A DNA stretch of 64,000 bases from Comamonadaceae bacterium (GTDB lineage: Bacteria; Pseudomonadota; Gammaproteobacteria; Burkholderiales; Burkholderiaceae_C), in contig CANFCG010000008.1 in assembly GCA_947445115.1 (NCBI GenBank), forward strand, positions 1 to 64,000, in the 5' to 3' direction. The notes below the pieces were generated by a model. It was not told the DNA's origin, ran no database searches, and saw nothing but the letters and a program-made list of their open reading frames with translations. Below, in pieces: positions 51,555-60,024 of the stretch. The translations under genes and the position numbers were made by a program. Positions within the stretch are counted from its first letter, which is position 1; each line of letters opens with the position of its first letter.

Positions 51555-52334
51555 TTACTGCTCAAACCGCTTGCGTAGTAGCTTGAGTGCAATCACAAAG
51601 GAGATGACTGCCACCACAATGAGCACGCCGAGGTTGAGCAGCACGTGTTCAGGCCAGGCTCCGAGGAATAAGGGTCTCACGAGGTTCACGGCGGCCGTGA
51701 GTGGCATGTATTCAGTGATGATTTGCGCAGCTTTGGGGAGTTGCTCGCGCGGGAAAAATCCACCTGCCATAAACATCATGGGTGTTAAAAACAGCGTCAT
51801 ATAAAACGCAAAGAAGTCGTAGCCTTTGGCAAGTGCCGTAAAAATCATGCCCATGCTGGAGAAGGTGAGTGCAACAAGCGCAAGCACAGGCAACACAAAG
51901 ATCATGTGCCACGTTAGTGCGTGCCCACCTAGCGTGAGCAGCGCCATCATGACGCACAAAATAATCGAGGCGGCAAACAAACCTTTAAATGCCGCCCAGA
52001 CGATTTCGCCTAGCACGATGTCGTCGATGATGACGGCGGCATTCAAAATGCCGTGCCACGTTTTTTGATGATCGAGTCTTGAATACGCGGAGTAGAGCGC
52101 TTCAAAACTCGCCGAGTTCATGGTACTCATGCAGATCAATCCGCTGGCAATAAAAACGAAATAGGGCACCGTGCCAAAAGGCGTTTGCACGTTGCCCACC
52201 AACGCACCGAGTCCGTAACCAAAGGCGAGCAGGGCAATGAGTGGCTCAGCAATGTGCGAGACAAGGCTACCCCACATTTGCTTGCGCCAGACTAAAAAAT
52301 TGCGCCTAAAAATGGAGATCCAGCGAATATTCAT
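51555..52334 (-). CDS. nodJ: ABC-2 type permease, NodJ family
   Basis: 259 aa, six membrane segments. Begins with RRNFLVWRKQMWGSLVSHIAEPL and keeps GLICMSTMNSASFEALYSAYSRL, the NodJ/ABC-2 pattern. The ATG overlaps the nodI stop by one base (TAATG). Outside rhizobia NodIJ homologues are exporters of unknown small molecules; no nod genes are present. Confidence 0.9.
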   Translation of the reverse strand: MNIRWISIFRRNFLVWRKQMWGSLVSHIAEPLIALLAFGYGLGALVGNVQTPFGTVPYFVFIASGLICMSTMNSASFEALYSAYSRLDHQKTWHGILNAAVIIDDIVLGEIVWAAFKGLFAASIILCVMMALLTLGGHALTWHMIFVLPVLALVALTFSSMGMIFTALAKGYDFFAFYMTLFLTPMMFMAGGFFPREQLPKAAQIITEYMPLTAAVNLVRPLFLGAWPEHVLLNLGVLIVVAVISFVIALKLLRKRFEQ

Positions 52335-53125
52335 TAAGAATCCATCCTGATTTGACGACCTGTGTATTTGAAGAATAAGTCTTCTAAATTGCTGCGACGC
52401 TTGAGGATGCCCACGCCTTCGATGTCCTCAGTAATCTCGGGCGGCAGGTGCTCGGCAATCAAATTGCGCGGGGTGCCTTCGATGAGTTTTTTGCCGTGGT
52501 CAATCATGCACAGGCGCGAACAAAGTCGCTCGGCTTCGTCCATAAAGTGCGTGGTCAAAAGAATCGACATGCCCGTGCTAAGTAGCTCGCGCAAGCGCTC
52601 CCACATTAAGTGCCGCGCTTGCGGATCGAGCCCAGTCGTGGGTTCGTCCAGCACCAAGAGCTGCGGCTCATTGACAAGCGCGCGTGCCAGCGACAAGCGC
52701 CGCTTCATACCGCCCGATAGCTCGCCAGGCCGCGCTTTGGCTTTGTGTGTCAAGGCGGCGAAGTCAAGTAACTTGGGAATGCGTTCGCGAATCAAGCTAT
52801 CCGCCATTCCGTAGTAGCGACCGTACGCGAGGATGTTTTCCTCGCACGAAAAATCAGGGTCGAGTGTGTCGAATTGACTCACCACGCCCATGCGTGCTTT
52901 GACCGCGAGGAGGTTGGTGGGAACATCGAGTCCAAAGGCTTGCACTTGTCCACTATCCGCATGGGTTTGACCAAGGCAGATTTTGAGCGTAGTGGTTTTA
53001 CCTGCACCGTTCGGACCAATGATGCCGAAGCATTCGCCCTTGGCGATGTGGAAAGATAGATCATCAACGACGCGGTTTTTGCCGTAATTTTTAATGAGAT
53101 TTTTTGCTTCAAAAAGAAGAGTCAT
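52334..53125 (-). CDS. nodI: ABC transporter ATPase, NodI family
   Basis: 263 aa. Walker A GPNGAGKTTTL, signature LSGGMKRRLSLARALV, Walker B LLVLDEPTTGLDP, switch TTHFMDEAERLC. Start at MTLLFEAKN; an earlier in-frame start would overlap the EamA gene. Pairs with nodJ. Confidence 0.92.
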   Translation of the reverse strand: MTLLFEAKNLIKNYGKNRVVDDLSFHIAKGECFGIIGPNGAGKTTTLKICLGQTHADSGQVQAFGLDVPTNLLAVKARMGVVSQFDTLDPDFSCEENILAYGRYYGMADSLIRERIPKLLDFAALTHKAKARPGELSGGMKRRLSLARALVNEPQLLVLDEPTTGLDPQARHLMWERLRELLSTGMSILLTTHFMDEAERLCSRLCMIDHGKKLIEGTPRNLIAEHLPPEITEDIEGVGILKRRSNLEDLFFKYTGRQIRMDS

Positions 53126-53148
53126 AGATTCAATTTTATAAAACCAAT

Positions 53149-54036
53149 TTAGAGGGCTAGCGCGGCGACTCCGAGTGCAATCAGGCAAGCGCCTGCAATG
53201 CGTGCTTTGCGGTCACCTTCACCCAGTAAGCGCCCACCAATTAAGGCCGCAAAGAGCATGGAGACTTCGCGCGCAGGTGCCACATGCGAGAGTGGCGCGA
53301 GTTGCACGGCGTAGAGTACGAGCGTGTAGCCAACTGAGCCAGCAACGGCAACGAAGAGGCATGGCTTCCAGTAGGTTTTCCAAACCGGGAGCAGCGTATA
53401 CCTGTCCTTCCAAACCAACGGCAGGTAGAGCGGAATACGGATGAAGTTGCTCATGTAATCCAGCAAGATAGGACTGACGAGCAGGAACTTGACTGCATAG
53501 CCATCAATCGCCGTATAACTGGCAATCCACAAACCTGTGAGCAAACCGTATATCAAACCTGCTTTGAGTTTTTGTGAATCGGCTGGGTTGCGTGCGTGTG
53601 CGGCACGCTGCCAAACCTTAGCGCCACCGGCAATTAAAAATACGCCGCAGACCACGCCCAGTAAGCCCGCTAGGCCTAGTGGTGTTAGTGATTCACCCAT
53701 CCATAGAATCGCAGCGCTGGCAGATAAAACTGGCCCTGATCCACGCGCGACGGAGTAGACCACAGTGAGATCGGCCACGCGGTAGCCCTTGAGTAGGAAC
53801 ACGTAATAACCCACGTGCGTGACCGCGCTCCAAAACATAAACCACCACTCGCGCTGACCCCAAGTCGGCACAACGTCCCAGCCAAGATAGAGACCGAGCG
53901 GTGCCCAAAATAGCATGAGGAAGATACACGAGAGCAAGCCGAATCTGGCATCGCCACCTGCGCGTTTAGCGTAAAAATTCCAAGTGGCATGAATGATCGC
54001 TGCCGCGATAACAAGCGCTAGTGCTGATAATGGCAC
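53149..54036 (-). CDS. EamA/DMT-superfamily transporter
   Basis: 295 aa, ten membrane segments in two EamA repeats; motifs HATWNFYAKRAGGD and LAPLSHVAPAREVSMLFAALIGGRLLGE near the end. Probable metabolite exporter, substrate unknown. Two bases after the BLUF gene and 23 bases before nodI. Confidence 0.9.
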   Translation of the reverse strand: MPLSALALVIAAAIIHATWNFYAKRAGGDARFGLLSCIFLMLFWAPLGLYLGWDVVPTWGQREWWFMFWSAVTHVGYYVFLLKGYRVADLTVVYSVARGSGPVLSASAAILWMGESLTPLGLAGLLGVVCGVFLIAGGAKVWQRAAHARNPADSQKLKAGLIYGLLTGLWIASYTAIDGYAVKFLLVSPILLDYMSNFIRIPLYLPLVWKDRYTLLPVWKTYWKPCLFVAVAGSVGYTLVLYAVQLAPLSHVAPAREVSMLFAALIGGRLLGEGDRKARIAGACLIALGVAALAL

Positions 54037-54038
54037 TG

Positions 54039-54461
54039 CTACGCGCGGCCAATAATGGAGGCGGTCGCCATCAGTTCTTCCAGCAGCGCTAGCGATACTT
54101 TCCCAGAGACCGAGTAGGGGTTGAGTTCGGGTAGTTCGGAATACTTCATTAGTACCGTGGTGTTGATTTTGGAGAGGTTGACTTGTCCCATCGTCCAGCC
54201 ACCAAAACGGCGTTCGCTAATTTCTTCGTAGTGCAAGAGGACCACATCGGCGTGTCGCGCATCGCGGATGATGTGGTTGTAGAGTTCACTTACCGCATCG
54301 CGGCCGCCTTCGATGGCTTGCAAAAAGATATTGCCGCTATGGCACAAAATACCTGTGATGCCCAGGCCTGGATTGTGCAAGCGCGATTGGCTAAGAATGG
54401 ATTCAACGGTCTCGACAGAGTTGCTAATGCAGCGGCTGACGTAGAGGAGGCGAACGAGCAT
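54039..54461 (-). CDS. BLUF-domain blue-light sensor protein
   Basis: 140 aa, single FAD-binding BLUF domain. The light-cycle residues are all present: Y7 (RLLYVSR), N30 (LHNPGLGITG), Q48 (FLQAIEG), and W89/M91 (FGGWTMG). A C-terminal cap of about 40 residues carries no output domain, so it must signal through a partner. It lies between folE and an EamA gene in a tight run downstream of rpoH. Confidence 0.93.
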   Translation of the reverse strand: MLVRLLYVSRCISNSVETVESILSQSRLHNPGLGITGILCHSGNIFLQAIEGGRDAVSELYNHIIRDARHADVVLLHYEEISERRFGGWTMGQVNLSKINTTVLMKYSELPELNPYSVSGKVSLALLEELMATASIIGRA

Positions 54462-54490
54462 GATGTGTCCTTGATTGGGTCTGAGGTCGT

Positions 54491-55201
54491 TTAGGTTCTT
54501 TGTGGCAACAACGCTAAAAATTCACGGCGCAAATTAGGATCTTTCAAAAAACTACCACGCATGACCGAATTAATCATCTTGCTGTCCATATCCTTTACAC
54601 CGCGCCAATGCATGCAAAAGTGGCTGGCTTCCATCACCAGTGCAAGTCCGTTGGGCTGCGTGAGGTCCTGTATCAAGTCTGCCAACTGCACGACAGCTTC
54701 TTCTTGAATTTGCGGACGGTTCATGATCCATTCGGCAAGGCGCGCATATTTAGACAGGCCAATTACGTTGGTGTGCTCGTTGGGCATCACGCCAATCCAA
54801 ACCTTACCAATGACAGGGCAAAAATGATGGCTACACGCCGAACGCACGGTGATGGGTCCGACGATCATGAGTTCGTTTAAATGCCCAACGTTGGGGAACT
54901 CGGTCACCGCTGGAGCAGGAACGTAGCGGCCTTTAAACACTTCGTTCAGATACATTTTGGCGACGCGCCGCGCGGTGTTGTTGGTGTTGTGATCGCTCTC
55001 TAAATCGATCACCATGCTCTCTAGCACACCTTGCATTTTTTCGGTGACTTCATCCAGTAAAACAGACATTTCACCTTCGTTGATGAAGGCGGAAATGTTA
55101 TCGTTGGCGTGAAAGCGTTTTTTGCTCGCGACGATGCGTTCGCGAATTTTGACGGACATCGGCGTACCGACATCTACCAAGGAGTCATTGTTTTTTGTCA
55201 T
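54491..55201 (-). CDS. folE: GTP cyclohydrolase I
   Basis: First enzyme of folate/tetrahydropterin synthesis, 236 aa, a little longer than usual owing to an N-terminal extension. Zinc ligands: Cys/His in RSACSHHFCPV and Cys in HFCMHWRGV; GTP-binding IGLSKYARLAEW. It starts 7 bases after the rpoH stop; no clear Shine-Dalgarno. Confidence 0.96.
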   Translation of the reverse strand: MTKNNDSLVDVGTPMSVKIRERIVASKKRFHANDNISAFINEGEMSVLLDEVTEKMQGVLESMVIDLESDHNTNNTARRVAKMYLNEVFKGRYVPAPAVTEFPNVGHLNELMIVGPITVRSACSHHFCPVIGKVWIGVMPNEHTNVIGLSKYARLAEWIMNRPQIQEEAVVQLADLIQDLTQPNGLALVMEASHFCMHWRGVKDMDSKMINSVMRGSFLKDPNLRREFLALLPQRT

Positions 55202-55208
55202 GTATCTA

Positions 55209-56168
55209 TTATGCCGATAGTGTCGTTTTCATCTTCTTCATAGCTGCCACCTCAATCTGCCGAATGCGCTCAGCACTCACGCCGTACTCCGCCGCCAAAT
55301 CGTGCAGCGTCATGCCGCCCGTGCCGTTGTCGTTGACTTTGAGCCAACGCTCGGTCACGATGCGGCGGCTGCGCTCATCAAGCGCGGCTAGGGCACTGGC
55401 GACGCCGTCCGTTGCCATCGTATCGCGCTCGTTGTTCTCAAGCGTCTGTACAGGGTCAAAACGTTCGTCGCTCAAGTAGTGGATGGGGCCATAAGCTTCG
55501 TCTTCCCCGTCGGCACTTGTTGGGTCAATTACCACATCGCCACCCGACATGCGCCGCTCCATCTCGCGCACTTCTTCAGGTTTGACGTTGAGTTTTTTCG
55601 ACATGGCCGCTACGTCTTTGTTGCTCAGCGTCGTGCGCTCGGCAATGCCTGCGGTCTCAGCTCCTTCGGCGTGTAGTCCATACATTTCGTCACGCGCATC
55701 CGCAATCAGCGCTTGCTTCATCGAGCGTAAGTTGAAGAACAGCTTGCGCTGTCCTTTGGTAGTTGCCACTTTGACCATACGCCAGTTTTTGATGATGTAT
55801 TCGTGAATTTCGGCCTTAATCCAATGCATGGCGTAGCTGACCAAACGCACGCCCATTGTGGGGTCAAAGCGCTTGACGGCCTTCATGAGTCCGACATTAC
55901 CTTCTTGAATCAAGTCGGCGTGTGGCAAGCCATACCCGAGGTATTGGCGCGACACGGATACCACCACACGCAAGTGCGAAAGCACCAGCTTGCGAGCCGC
56001 TTCCAAATCACCGGACTCTTTGAGTGAGGCCGCAAATTGCTGCTCCTCTTCCAAGGTGAGCAACGGCAAGTTGTGGATTGCCGAGATATACGCTTCCAAA
56101 TTGCCCAGTGGCGGAATCAAACCCCAAGATTTAACGGGAGCGACGAGTGTGAGAGCTTGTGATGTCAT
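55209..56168 (-). CDS. rpoH: RNA polymerase sigma-32 (heat shock)
   Basis: 319 aa. Region 2 with LVLSHLRVVVSVSRQYLGYGL and DLIQEGNVGLMKAVKRFDP, the RpoH box QRKLFFNLR, and region 4 helix-turn-helix LHDLAAEYGVSAERIRQIE. AGGAG RBS. A perfect CIRCE element lies 41 bases upstream, so HrcA probably represses it. First gene of a packed run rpoH-folE-BLUF-eamA-nodIJ. Confidence 0.97.
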   Translation of the reverse strand: MTSQALTLVAPVKSWGLIPPLGNLEAYISAIHNLPLLTLEEEQQFAASLKESGDLEAARKLVLSHLRVVVSVSRQYLGYGLPHADLIQEGNVGLMKAVKRFDPTMGVRLVSYAMHWIKAEIHEYIIKNWRMVKVATTKGQRKLFFNLRSMKQALIADARDEMYGLHAEGAETAGIAERTTLSNKDVAAMSKKLNVKPEEVREMERRMSGGDVVIDPTSADGEDEAYGPIHYLSDERFDPVQTLENNERDTMATDGVASALAALDERSRRIVTERWLKVNDNGTGGMTLHDLAAEYGVSAERIRQIEVAAMKKMKTTLSA

Positions 56169-56208
56169 GGATTCTCCTAAAACATAAGTTACAAGGGAAA
56201 ACCCGATA

Positions 56209-56235
56209 TTAGCACTCTTCCGATGAGAGTGCTAA
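56209..56235. promoter_or_regulatory. CIRCE element (HrcA operator) upstream of rpoH
   Basis: TTAGCACTC-N9-GAGTGCTAA, an exact match to the CIRCE consensus with perfect 9-base arms and a 9-base spacer. It is located 41 bases before the rpoH start, with the Mpo1-like gene ending 16 bases beyond on the other side. Confidence 0.96.
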
Positions 56236-56251
56236 TAGCTTTACTGCATCT

Positions 56252-56686
56252 TTACCATTGGATTTTTAATCGGGTAAACAGCTTGGACAGCACAAACAGC
56301 GGTCCAACCCATAAATATTGAATATCTTCAAAGAAAGAGGGTTTTTTGCCCTCTAACTGGTGACCGATGAATTGCAAAATCCAAGCACCAATAAACACGG
56401 CTACCGAGACCGTGACTAATTGCGTTCCTAACGCCTGTATCCCCCACAGCATCACCGCTGACCATACGAGCATGGTGATTAAAAATATGGCGGACAGCCT
56501 GGCGTAGTAAATGAAACTGCCAGTCAAAAATACATACAGCACAAACGGATGGATGGCGTAGAGCAAGCCCGACAGGCTGAGCATGATGAGCGGTATGGCG
56601 ATGAAGTGAATCAGCTCGTTGGTGGGGTTTGTGTGGCTCTCGCCATAGTGGTTGATGAGGGTATCAACTCTGCGAATATCAGTCAT
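56252..56686 (-). CDS. DUF962/Mpo1-like membrane protein
   Basis: 144 aa, about four membrane segments. N-terminal His motif HYGESHTNPTNELIHFIAIPL and WILQFIGHQLEGKKPSF are typical of the DUF962 family; yeast Mpo1 is an iron-dependent 2-hydroxy-fatty-acid dioxygenase. Bacterial function is untested as far as I know. Begins 4 bases after the anti-sigma gene, so it is likely part of that operon. Confidence 0.85.
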   Translation of the reverse strand: MTDIRRVDTLINHYGESHTNPTNELIHFIAIPLIMLSLSGLLYAIHPFVLYVFLTGSFIYYARLSAIFLITMLVWSAVMLWGIQALGTQLVTVSVAVFIGAWILQFIGHQLEGKKPSFFEDIQYLWVGPLFVLSKLFTRLKIQW

Positions 56687-56690
56687 GAGG

Positions 56691-57422
56691 TTATTTCCAT
56701 TTCCAAAATTTGCCGCATAGGCCTCGGTAGATAAAAGCTTGGCTGGGTTTGCTGGGTGCGCTGCCGGTGGGCTCCATTGAAACAGCTAGCTCAGTTGCAG
56801 AGAAGAACACCGCCTCAGAAGGTTCAGCCAGCGCTATTGTGCTCCATTTTTCATTGGGGATTGCCGCTACGGGTGCGACTTGCCCCTCCTTATCGATACG
56901 CCATAAATAAAGCGTTTTCTCGGCAGGCAGCGCAGGCAATTTGGCTTGCTGAAGTTCGACAACCTTGCCTTGGCGTAGGCTGGATACGGTGAGACCTGCT
57001 TTGCCCTCTGGCGTCGCTAAAACGCCCACATAGCTTTCTGGTAGTACGGTTTGGCGCTGGCTCAGTGACTGCATTTGCCAGAGTACGGGGACTAAGCCGC
57101 CCACACCAAGGCCGATCACCATGGCACCTATCGGCAGCGGCATCAGTAGGCTCTGCCACCAAGCGCGCGTAGGCGCTGTCACCTTGGGGGCGAGTTGGGT
57201 TTGCTTGGCAATCGACTGCCAAAGCGCCGCCTTTGGCTCTAAGCTTGGTAAAGCCATATGCAGTGGGCTCAAGCGCTCAGACCAATCCGATACCGCTGCA
57301 GCAACGTTGGGGCGTGTTTGCATCACCACTTCGAAACGTGTGCGGGCACTGCCTTGGAGGGTGCCCAGCACGTAGCTGGATGCTAATTTGTCAACTAGGG
57401 ATGGATGCTCATGCCATTTCAT
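56691..57422 (-). CDS. Anti-sigma factor, RskA-like
   Basis: 243 aa. Cytoplasmic N-terminus (LASSYVLGTLQGSARTRFE), one membrane helix near residues 107-130 (IGAMVIGLGVGGLVPVLW) and a periplasmic RskA domain (LPAEKTLYLWRIDKEGQ). Start placed where it overlaps the sigma gene by 4 bases; a longer form would run far into it. It should hold the ECF sigma factor at the membrane. Confidence 0.88.
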   Translation of the reverse strand: MKWHEHPSLVDKLASSYVLGTLQGSARTRFEVVMQTRPNVAAAVSDWSERLSPLHMALPSLEPKAALWQSIAKQTQLAPKVTAPTRAWWQSLLMPLPIGAMVIGLGVGGLVPVLWQMQSLSQRQTVLPESYVGVLATPEGKAGLTVSSLRQGKVVELQQAKLPALPAEKTLYLWRIDKEGQVAPVAAIPNEKWSTIALAEPSEAVFFSATELAVSMEPTGSAPSKPSQAFIYRGLCGKFWKWK

Positions 57423-57988
57423 ATGTTGTTCTCCATGCAGCCTTTGAGTCGCACTAAGCTGCGGCGTGTCCAAGCTTTGACGGTACCCAGCGGACGGTGC
57501 ATCTGCTTTGCGATTTGAATATGCGTCAGTCCATCGTAAAAAGCGAGCAACATGGCTTGCCTAGGTTCGCCTTCCAACTGGCTCATGCATTCACCAAGCC
57601 TTGCCCCCTCTTGATTGGCTATCAGCTGCGGTAGTAGCGATGCAGATTCATCCACCGCGTCGTGCGAGTGCTCAGTGCCTTCGTCATCCATCCAGAGCAG
57701 CGGTGTCTCGGGTTTCTTTTTTCGCAGCGCATCAATGGCGCGGTTACGCGTCACCACACACAGCCACGCCAAACTCAAGTTTTGCCCCATCAAGCGTGGC
57801 AGCGATTCACTCCAAATTTTGATGAAGACTTCTTGCACGACATCTTCGGCGGCGGCGCGGTCTTGCAGCACCCGCCAAGCCACAGCCAGTAAGCGTTTGG
57901 CCGAGATCGCATAGAGCGACTTGAACGCCACTGCATCACGCAAGCTAATGCGTGATAGCAATCTTTCTATCTCTAGGCGTTCATCCAT
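57419..57988 (-). CDS. ECF sigma factor, SigK-like
   Basis: 189 aa. Region 2 DVVQEVFIKIWSESLP and VVTRNRAIDALRKKK; region 4 LTHIQIAKQMHRPLGTVKAWTRRSL. Overlaps the RskA-like anti-sigma gene. The secreted-protein gene lies 35 bases upstream on the same strand and is a likely target. Confidence 0.92.
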   Translation of the reverse strand: MDERLEIERLLSRISLRDAVAFKSLYAISAKRLLAVAWRVLQDRAAAEDVVQEVFIKIWSESLPRLMGQNLSLAWLCVVTRNRAIDALRKKKPETPLLWMDDEGTEHSHDAVDESASLLPQLIANQEGARLGECMSQLEGEPRQAMLLAFYDGLTHIQIAKQMHRPLGTVKAWTRRSLVRLKGCMENNI

Positions 57989-58023
57989 GCAGTCGATACT
58001 ACCGCACCAGCCACGTATCAATA

Positions 58024-58377
58024 TTATTTGACAATGTGCCAAACGCCTGCTTTGCCGTCGCCGTTACGATCGCCAGCCTTAGTATCGCCCACAAAGTAAT
58101 ACAGTGGCTTGCCTTTAACTGTCCATTGGCGCGTGCCATTGGCATCAATCACGCCGAAATCACCTTTTGCAGCTGCGCCTGCTGGTGCCGCATAAGTTGG
58201 CCAGTTGACCAAGCATGGGCCAGCGCAATTGCTTTTGTTAGCTTCGTCTTTGTCAAAAGTGTAGACCGCGCGGCCAGCGGCATCGGCCAGTGCACCATCT
58301 TTCATGACGGGCTGCGCTTGCACGCTAACGGCAAGCAAGGCTAGGACGGCGGAGGCTAAAAGAGTCTTTGTATTCAT
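58024..58377 (-). CDS. Secreted COG4315-type repeat protein (lipoprotein_15 family)
   Basis: 117 aa. Signal peptide ending near AVSVQAQP without a lipobox, so soluble periplasmic. Two copies of the family's short unit: AVYTFDKDEANKSNCAGPCLVNWP and PLYYFVGDTKAGDRNGDG ending GVWHIVK. Function of the family is unknown. First gene of the secreted protein-ECF sigma-anti-sigma-DUF962 cluster. Confidence 0.87.
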   Translation of the reverse strand: MNTKTLLASAVLALLAVSVQAQPVMKDGALADAAGRAVYTFDKDEANKSNCAGPCLVNWPTYAAPAGAAAKGDFGVIDANGTRQWTVKGKPLYYFVGDTKAGDRNGDGKAGVWHIVK

Positions 58378-58478
58378 GATGCAAGTTCCTTAAAAGTTGA
58401 TAGAGCGCAAAATCGCGTTCTGGCTATAGAACGAGGCAACTTTTGGTTTGGATGCAGCAGATGAAAAATATTTAGTAT

Positions 58479-59390
58479 TCAACTAAAAAGTGCTTCGGAA
58501 AATTCTCTGGCATCGAACGGCTGTAAGTCTTCCAGAGCTTCACCTACGCCAATAAAGTAGACTTTTGGTACATTCGGCAATAGTGCGATTGCTGCTAGCA
58601 CGCCGCCTTTGGCTGTGCCGTCTAGCTTGGTAATGATGACGCCGGTCACGCCGATGGCGGCATCAAATGCTTGAAGCTGCACGAGCGCGTTTTGCCCCGT
58701 ATTGCCATCCAACACCAAGATGACTTCGTGTGGAGCAGAAAAGTCGGCTTTTTGAATGACCCGTTTGATCTTTGTCAGCTCCGCCATGAGGTGTGCTTGC
58801 GTGGGCAGGCGTCCTGCCGTGTCTGCAATCACAAGGCTTGCACCTCGTGCCTTGCCAGCCATCACCGCGTCGTAGCACACGCTGGACGGGTCAGCACCTT
58901 CTTGGCTAATGATTTCGACTTTGCTGCTTCCCAGTTTGTTTCTGTCAGCCCACACAGCAAGCTGTTCGCGTGCGGCGGCGCGGAAGGTGTCAGCGGCTGC
59001 GAGCAACACCGATGCACCTTGGTTTGCAAAATGCCAAGTGAGTTTGCCGATGCTGGTGGTTTTGCCAGCGCCGTTGACGCCTGCCACCATCATCACAGTA
59101 GGCTGCAAGGCCAATACCAGCTTGCCTTGCAGCGGAGTCAATAAATCCGTCATAGCATCAATGAGTAGAGCTTTGACCTGGTTGGAATCACTGGCTTTGG
59201 TCGCTTTGACGCGGGCTTTGAGGTCGTTTAAAAGATGCGTCGTTGCCGCCACGCCTGCATCGCTCATCAAGAGTGCGGCCTCTAACTCTTCATACAAGTC
59301 GTCATTAATTTTTTTGCCCGTAAAGACTTCGCTAATGGCACGATTGGTTTTTTTAAGGCCGTTTTTGAGTTTGGAGAAAAAAGAAATCAT
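58479..59390 (-). CDS. ftsY: Signal recognition particle receptor FtsY
   Basis: 303 aa, lacking the long acidic A domain of E. coli FtsY. NG domain: GVNGAGKTTSIGKL (G1), DTFRAAAREQL, DTAGRLPTQ (G3), TKLDGTAKGG (G4). Start set at MISFFSKLKNGLKKT, an amphipathic membrane-targeting helix. It directly follows pth on the same strand. Confidence 0.96.
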   Translation of the reverse strand: MISFFSKLKNGLKKTNRAISEVFTGKKINDDLYEELEAALLMSDAGVAATTHLLNDLKARVKATKASDSNQVKALLIDAMTDLLTPLQGKLVLALQPTVMMVAGVNGAGKTTSIGKLTWHFANQGASVLLAAADTFRAAAREQLAVWADRNKLGSSKVEIISQEGADPSSVCYDAVMAGKARGASLVIADTAGRLPTQAHLMAELTKIKRVIQKADFSAPHEVILVLDGNTGQNALVQLQAFDAAIGVTGVIITKLDGTAKGGVLAAIALLPNVPKVYFIGVGEALEDLQPFDAREFSEALFS

Positions 59391-59400
59391 GAGCCGAATC

Positions 59401-60024
59401 TTATGCGCGCTGCGCAGTGTCTGCACTTATTGCTTTGGGTGGTTTGGGCTCTTTGGGCTTGGTGTGGACGAGCTTAGTCGCTGCCTCCATGTCACCCGAG
59501 AGCAATAGTGGCGAGGCCTCCAAGCTTTTTGCTATTGCAATGTGAATCGCTTCGCGGTGCTCTTGCATGGGCTTTTGCAGCACCCAATTAATGACTTCTT
59601 CGCGCACGCCAGGGTGTCCCACGCCAATGCGCAATCGCCAGTAATCCGATGATCCGAGTTTGGCGTGAATGTCGCGCAGGCCGTTGTGTCCAGCATGCCC
59701 ACCGCCAAATTTCATTTTGATTTGTCCTGGGGGAATGTCGAGCTCGTCGTGAATGACCAAGATCTCTTCAGGCTTGATTTTGTAGAAGTTAGCCAAAGCA
59801 CCAACTGACTGCCCCGACAAGTTCATAAAAGTTTGCGGCTCCAAAAGCCAAAAGGCTTGTCCGCTCGAGTTGCCTCGGGCGACCAAGCCTTTGTAAGCTC
59901 TGTCCGAGTTAAGTGTTAGCTTTTGTTTGGCTGCCAAGGCTTCAAGCCACCAGAAACCCGCGTTATGACGGGTTCCTTCGTACTCAACGCCTGGGTTGCC
60001 AAGGCCAACAAATAACTTAATCAC
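59401..60024 (-). CDS. pth: Peptidyl-tRNA hydrolase
   Basis: 207 aa. Catalytic His in [11 protein letters not shown], plus [13 protein letters not shown] and [24 protein letters not shown]. The last about 20 residues are a Lys/Pro-rich tail ([10 protein letters not shown]). Follows rplY, the usual prs-rplY-pth order. Confidence 0.97.

What the first reader, a model, noticed from the sequence alone, without database searches (positions are those of the whole stretch)
56169..56235. Perfect CIRCE in front of rpoH
The sigma-32 gene itself carries an exact HrcA operator, linking the two heat-shock circuits: HrcA relief would raise sigma-32. CIRCE is usually found at groESL/dnaK; at rpoH it is known or predicted in only some proteobacteria.
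Basis: partly seen in the sequence, partly recalled or inferred. Interest (0 to 1): 0.58.

Follow-up and report, generated by a model that had tools for sequence, protein, structure and literature searches.

The report
HrcA operator on the rpoH promoter
A perfect binding site for the heat-shock repressor HrcA lies in front of the gene for the heat-shock sigma factor; it is real, but such a site turns out to be the usual arrangement in this bacterium's relatives, where it overlaps predicted rpoH promoters.

Summary
A perfect CIRCE (TTAGCACTC-N9-GAGTGCTAA) lies at 56209-56235, 40 nt before the rpoH start codon (minus strand), the only match within 3 mismatches in the window. CIRCE at rpoH is not rare: it precedes rpoH in 78 of 80 relatives found by RpoH. 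In 58 genomes from 58 families of the class it precedes rpoH in 35 of 41 with hrcA and 1 of 17 without (Fisher p = 1.4e-8). It was predicted for Geobacter sulfurreducens in 2004. The useful extra result is geometry: at rpoH the operator lies on promoter-like elements. Some relatives (28 of 79 close, 18 of 43 wider) have a sigma-E-type -35 (GGAACTT) before CIRCE with its -10 box inside it, usually 16 bp apart; most have AT just after CIRCE, giving TGCTAANAT. The window and four other genus genomes lack that -35, and none of the five has RpoE over the curated cut-off; the window keeps TGCTAATAT. Most likely HrcA represses rpoH by blocking polymerase, so chaperonin shortage raises sigma-32. Binding and promoter use are untested.

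The parts
56209..56235 (-). perfect CIRCE (HrcA operator), TTAGCACTC-TCATCGGAA-GAGTGCTAA read on the minus strand
56206..56214 (-). TGCTAATAT: extended -10-like element made of the right CIRCE arm (TGCTAA) plus the flanking TAT
   Evidence: sequence; AT at the 2nd and 3rd base after CIRCE in 77 of 79 close rpoH sites and 28 of 43 wider rpoH sites, 2 of 40 groES sites. Promoter role inferred
56174..56178 (-). AGGAG ribosome-binding site of rpoH
   Evidence: sequence
55209..56168 (-). rpoH, sigma-32 (319 aa; QRKLFFNLR box visible)
54491..55201 (-). folE-like GTP cyclohydrolase I, 7 nt after rpoH; probably in the same transcript, so under the same operator
   Evidence: follows rpoH in 5 of 5 genus genomes
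56252..56686 (-). Mpo1-like (DUF962) gene directly upstream of the CIRCE, same strand; ends 16 nt before it

Best explanation
The element is an HrcA operator that represses transcription of rpoH. HrcA, which is encoded in this genome, binds CIRCE as a dimer and covers the rpoH promoter, so RNA polymerase cannot start. When unfolded protein takes up GroEL, HrcA is no longer kept active (established for HrcA elsewhere; recalled), and groESL and rpoH, the only two genes with CIRCE found here, are released together. More sigma-32 then raises the rest of the heat-shock genes. Shown by sequence: operator, hrcA, second site at groES, conservation tied to hrcA, conserved promoter-like elements overlapping the operator in relatives. 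Inferred: binding, promoter use, direction and size of the effect. In part of the relatives the blocked promoter looks sigma-E-type. In this genus that -35 is missing and no RpoE reaches the curated cut-off, so here a housekeeping-type promoter (TGCTAATAT) is the likely target.
For: Perfect site, the only one in the window. hrcA 336 aa, TIGR00331 305.5 bits against a cut-off of 197.2. Two CIRCEs at up to 3 mismatches in the genome, the other before groES. CIRCE with up to 2 mismatches before rpoH in 78 of 80 relatives, 65 of them perfect. CIRCE in 295 of 299 family genomes, exactly two in 262 by my count of the listing; that call does not say at which genes. Class sample: 35 of 41 hrcA genomes against 1 of 17. 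rpoH-specific flanks: AT after CIRCE in 77/79 and 28/43 against 2/40 at groES. Sigma-E-type -35 with at most 1 mismatch in -22..-8 in 28/79 and 18/43, shuffles mean 1.4 and 0.7, against 1/40 at groES. The -10 goes with the -35: TCNNA at CIRCE positions 11-15 in 22 of 25 close sites with the -35 at -12 against 15 of 51 without the -35 (p = 1.5e-6); A at position 11 in 14 of 14 wider sites with the -35 at -16, 12 of 25 without, 6 of 40 groES sites.
Against: No binding or expression data. The window's own promoter is weak by consensus: the sigma-70 scan finds none at 9 of 12, and the sigma-E -35 is absent. In the four other genus genomes the triplet after CIRCE at rpoH is TTT, so the extended -10 is not shared within the genus. 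51 of 79 close and 25 of 43 wider rpoH sites lack the sigma-E -35 at this stringency, and 15 of 43 wider sites lack AT. One genome without detectable hrcA still has the site (G311). Six hrcA genomes lack a site at rpoH: G308, G319, G331, G348, G353, and G328, which has no rpoH over the cut-off. One relative (L081) has no site; L051 cannot be judged.
Confidence: 0.85

Rival explanations
1. The site is bound by HrcA but matters little: rpoH is mainly controlled after transcription (translation, stability by DnaK and FtsH) or by read-through from upstream genes, and the operator only trims a minor promoter.
For: The Mpo1-like gene ends 16 nt upstream on the same strand and the anti-sigma and ECF genes lie further upstream on the same strand, so read-through is possible. 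In E. coli sigma-32 is mostly controlled after transcription (recalled).
Against: Both arms are nearly invariant in 79 sites and locus-specific promoter-like flanks are conserved beside them. The site is kept at rpoH in 35 of 41 class genomes that keep hrcA.
Confidence: 0.13
2. The inverted repeat acts in the mRNA leader as a hairpin or thermometer rather than as a DNA operator.
For: The repeat is palindromic and close to the start codon.
Against: The only Rfam hit at E up to 1 around it (Vault, 56276-56387) is below its gathering score and outside the repeat. Both arms keep the CIRCE sequence instead of drifting with compensation. If the overlapping promoters are used, the start site is inside or just after the repeat. 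I did not fold the leader.
Confidence: 0.02

Closest known systems
CIRCE before rpoH of Geobacter sulfurreducens (PMC545781, Table 8, passages seen)
   Same: Perfect CIRCE close before rpoH (given as -51); a groESL CIRCE in the same genome
   Different: Geobacter also has CIRCE at hrcA-grpE-dnaKJ. Here hrcA follows the ATP synthase genes, and neither of the two CIRCEs is near it
CIRCE before groES in the same genome (G000:C24:33598-33624)
   Same: Same perfect operator
   Different: At groES sites of the class sample a TTGAC-like -35 and a -10-like box mostly lie upstream of CIRCE by eye; at rpoH the promoter-like elements overlap CIRCE itself
E. coli rpoH P3, the sigma-E promoter (recalled, no call)
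   Same: Sigma-E-type promoter just before rpoH, as in part of the CIRCE-bearing relatives
   Different: No HrcA match in E. coli (not among the 7 control genomes that ring); in those relatives the -10 box lies inside the operator. The window and its genus lack the sigma-E -35

Membership tests
HrcA/CIRCE regulon | TTAGCACTC-N9-GAGTGCTAA operator | tested here: met
   0 mismatches
HrcA/CIRCE regulon | hrcA in the genome | tested here: met
   PF01628 E 3.9e-67; TIGR00331 over cut-off; DNA-binding domain PF03444 23.9 bits, just over its cut-off of 21
HrcA/CIRCE regulon | groESL also preceded by CIRCE | tested here: met
   perfect site before the groES start at a contig end; a groEL piece lies on another contig
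HrcA/CIRCE regulon | site conserved at the same gene in relatives that keep hrcA | tested here: met
   78/80 relatives (hrcA not tested in them); 35/41 hrcA class genomes
HrcA/CIRCE regulon | HrcA binding and heat derepression | not testable with these tools
   needs EMSA, footprint, RNA
sigma-32 (RpoH) | RpoH profile over cut-off and RpoH box | tested here: met
   TIGR02392 376.7 bits; QRKLFFNLR in the translation (box recalled)
sigma-E-type rpoH promoter under CIRCE | GGAACTT -35 and TCNNA -10, about 16 bp apart | tested here: not met
   met in part of the relatives but absent in the window; 0 of 5 genus genomes have RpoE over the TIGR02939 cut-off

The most novel reading that the evidence does not exclude
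CIRCE at rpoH is an old, class-wide logic gate. The operator grew over the sigma-E promoter of rpoH, even using the operator's own TC or its N9 spacer as the -10 box. Envelope stress (sigma-E) can then raise sigma-32 only when chaperonin is short and HrcA has let go. The gate rewires when RpoE is lost, as seems to be the case in the window's genus, with a housekeeping promoter taking over under the same operator.
Probability: 0.4. Interest if true: 0.6.

Novelty: new member of a known kind. Interest (0 to 1): 0.36.

Why it matters
It suggests that in most hrcA-bearing families sampled from this class, and in part of one family from another class of the phylum, the repressor and sigma-factor heat-shock circuits are wired in series through rpoH, not only in parallel. 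If the promoter overlap holds in the test tube, HrcA becomes a chaperonin-sensing gate on sigma-32 supply, and on sigma-E input to it, which can be tested directly in easily grown Comamonadaceae.

Tried and rejected
Chance match: rejected. Missing hrcA: rejected. Sigma-E promoter in the window itself: looked for and not there; I therefore do not claim it for this genome. Sigma-70 consensus scan of 55900-56800: no site, shuffles mean 1.0. RNA element: one sub-threshold Vault hit, taken as chance. Whether the sigma-E-type promoter depends on CIRCE: 5 of 20 rpoH genes from genomes without CIRCE have it within 400 nt (shuffles mean 0.5), against 18 of 43 with CIRCE (a narrower stretch), Fisher p = 0.26, so no dependence shown. 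Of those 20 genomes, hrcA was looked for in 14 (absent) and not in the other 6. Permina and Gelfand 2003, by its title on HrcA/CIRCE regulons of beta-, gamma- and epsilon-proteobacteria (title seen in the reference list shown), is not held; it may already report CIRCE at rpoH in these groups. Paper searches. No listed title or abstract start reports CIRCE overlapping a sigma-E promoter of rpoH, but the library lacks most subscription journals, and I saw passages only of PMC545781, PMC10696704, PMC3135505 and PMC3989490.

Limits of the counts. L051 is cut 12 nt before rpoH and cannot be judged. The 79 'close' sites are the window plus 78 of these. The 43 'wider' sites are 35 class genomes (all with the site except the window's own), G393 and G114 (the latter of the window's family) and six f68 genomes, five of them of one genus. 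The class CIRCE listing was cut, so 10 genomes were searched again. CIRCE places and rpoH places were matched by hand. Controls: a first set of 37 non-rpoH sites gave 27 groES sites; in the first sorting of these 37, AT followed 3. I later fetched the 23 remaining listed non-rpoH sites; one search then uses all 60: 40 groES (AT 2, -35 1) and 20 others (AT in either reading direction 4, -35 in 1, L190). Related genomes are not independent, so the p values are descriptive. In the wider set the TC of the -10 box is part of the CIRCE arm and so always there; only the A at position 11 and the -35 carry information. Phylum sample: CIRCE at rpoH in 6 of 14 genomes of family f68 and 0 of 31 other genomes outside the class; the f68 rpoH genes score under the TIGR02392 cut-off.

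Full report
What is there. The minus strand reads Mpo1-like gene (56252-56686), CIRCE (56209-56235), leader with AGGAG, rpoH (55209-56168), folE-like gene (54491-55201). The CIRCE is perfect and is the only match with up to 3 mismatches in 64 kb. Chance gives 8e-7 perfect matches per 64 kb. rpoH is a clear sigma-32 gene and the only match over that model's cut-off in the genome.

The partner. hrcA is on another contig of the same genome (G000:C18:14711, E 3.9e-67), 336 aa, over the TIGR00331 cut-off. The genome has just two CIRCEs at up to 3 mismatches. The second stands before groES at the end of a contig. hrcA itself follows the ATP synthase genes, 47 nt after atpC, and neither CIRCE is near it.

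How common it is. Eighty relatives were fetched by RpoH sequence, 62-92 percent identical; their records are named as Comamonadaceae, other Burkholderiales, or only beta- or Proteobacteria (that the named genera belong to Burkholderiales is recalled). Seventy-eight carry CIRCE with at most 2 mismatches before rpoH, 65 of them perfect. Of the two others, L051 is cut off by its contig end and L081 has no site. In the family, 295 of 299 genomes have CIRCE with up to 2 mismatches; by my count of the listing 262 have exactly two, 20 have one, 13 have three or four and 4 have none (which does not say at which genes). In the class, 58 genomes were drawn, each from its own family. Matching CIRCE places with rpoH places puts a CIRCE within 150 nt of the start of the rpoH profile match in 36 of 58. 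Of 41 with hrcA, 35 have it; of 17 without, 1 has it (G311). Fisher p = 1.4e-8. In a phylum sample, 6 of 14 genomes of family f68, outside the class, have it, and 0 of 31 other genomes outside the class.

Where it sits. At most groES sites of the class sample a TTGAC-like -35 and a -10-like box can be seen upstream of CIRCE (by eye). At rpoH two kinds of promoter-like sequence overlap the operator. First, AT stands at the second and third base after CIRCE in 77 of 79 close sites (window included) and 28 of 43 wider sites, against 2 of 40 groES sites (Fisher p = 3e-26 and 4e-9, descriptive only because related genomes are not independent). With the right arm this spells TGCTAANAT, an extended -10-like element. 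Second, a sigma-E-type -35 (GGAACTT, at most 1 mismatch, starting -22 to -8 from CIRCE) is found in 28 of 79 close and 18 of 43 wider sites, shuffled upstream sequence giving means of 1.4 and 0.7, and in 1 of 40 groES sites. In the close set it starts at -12 in 25 of the 28 cases, in the wider set at -16 in 14 of 18. The TCNNA box moves with it: to positions 11-15, inside the N9, in the close set, and to positions 7-11, using the operator's own TC, in the wider set. Counting any spacer from 13 to 19, 27 close and 18 wider sites have both boxes; the spacer is 16 in 22 and 15 of them. The check that matters: in the close set TCNNA at 11-15 is there in 22 of 25 sites with the -35 at -12 and 15 of 51 without the -35 (p = 1.5e-6); in the wider set, where TC comes free with the arm, the A at position 11 is there in 14 of 14 with the -35 at -16, 12 of 25 without, and 6 of 40 groES sites. 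This joint behaviour is the best evidence that it is a real promoter. Still, 51 of 79 close and 25 of 43 wider sites do not have the -35 at this stringency. Positions count the first base of CIRCE as 0.

The window and its genus. The window lacks the sigma-E -35 and keeps TGCTAATAT. Four other genus genomes also keep a perfect CIRCE before rpoH and lack the sigma-E -35 by eye in 60 nt, but have TTT after CIRCE. None of the 5 genus genomes (one only 78 percent complete) has RpoE over the TIGR02939 cut-off; of the control genomes 8 ring, E. coli among them, and 1 is over the cut-off (one search does not say which). The window genome's best weak match is the ECF factor just upstream of rpoH. So this genus seems to have lost the sigma-E input and kept the HrcA input.

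Mechanism. The best reading is direct repression: HrcA on CIRCE blocks polymerase at the rpoH promoter, and loss of active HrcA when GroEL is busy releases groESL and rpoH together. Sequence supports the parts and their conservation. Binding, promoter use, and the rise of sigma-32 are inferred. In the window folE begins 7 nt after rpoH and would share the control.

What is known. CIRCE at rpoH was predicted in Geobacter sulfurreducens, at -51, in 2004 (PMC545781, passages and Table 8), the authors using profiles from Permina and Gelfand 2003, which is not held. So the kind is known; the window is one more member. The searches listed under 'tried' showed no report of the overlap with a sigma-E promoter; they cover open-licence papers only.

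Fetching the remaining control sites raised the groES control from 27 to 40 sites and its positives from 1 to 2 (AT) and from 0 to 1 (-35); the added -10 test strengthened the promoter reading.

Noticed in passing
window 51555-59426, minus strand: ftsY, a secreted-repeat protein, ECF sigma factor, RskA-like anti-sigma, Mpo1-like gene, rpoH, folE, BLUF, EamA transporter and two ABC genes all run on one strand. rpoH-folE-EamA-ABC is kept in 5 of 5 genus genomes; ECF and anti-sigma lie near it in three (G000, G237, G155), only an anti-sigma fragment at a contig end in G411, none in the 10-kb G029 stretch.
   Followed up: partly
window 54039-54461: A BLUF blue-light sensor gene sits in the likely rpoH transcript, downstream of folE; present in 2 of 5 genus genomes (G000, G411). 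A folE match near rpoH is seen in none of the other 79 relatives (L005 is of the same genus), some of which are cut short.
   Followed up: partly
window 54491-55201: The folE product scores under NCBIfam's FolE cut-offs (150.6 against 181.6 bits for TIGR00063), so it may be a divergent paralog rather than the housekeeping enzyme.
   Followed up: no
L115 6415-7425: hrcA follows the ATP synthase genes (atpC ends 47 nt before it); no grpE or dnaK is seen among the frames beside it (by eye).
   Followed up: no
L147 (G305): Two CIRCEs in tandem, 5 nt apart, before rpoH in one class genome.
   Followed up: no
L205, L206, L207, L208: In the four other genus genomes the leader after CIRCE reads TTTT...TATNCT, and in two of them (L206, L207) TTGACG at the end of the N9 lies 16 nt before it, a possible sigma-70 promoter straddling the right CIRCE arm (by eye).
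   Followed up: no
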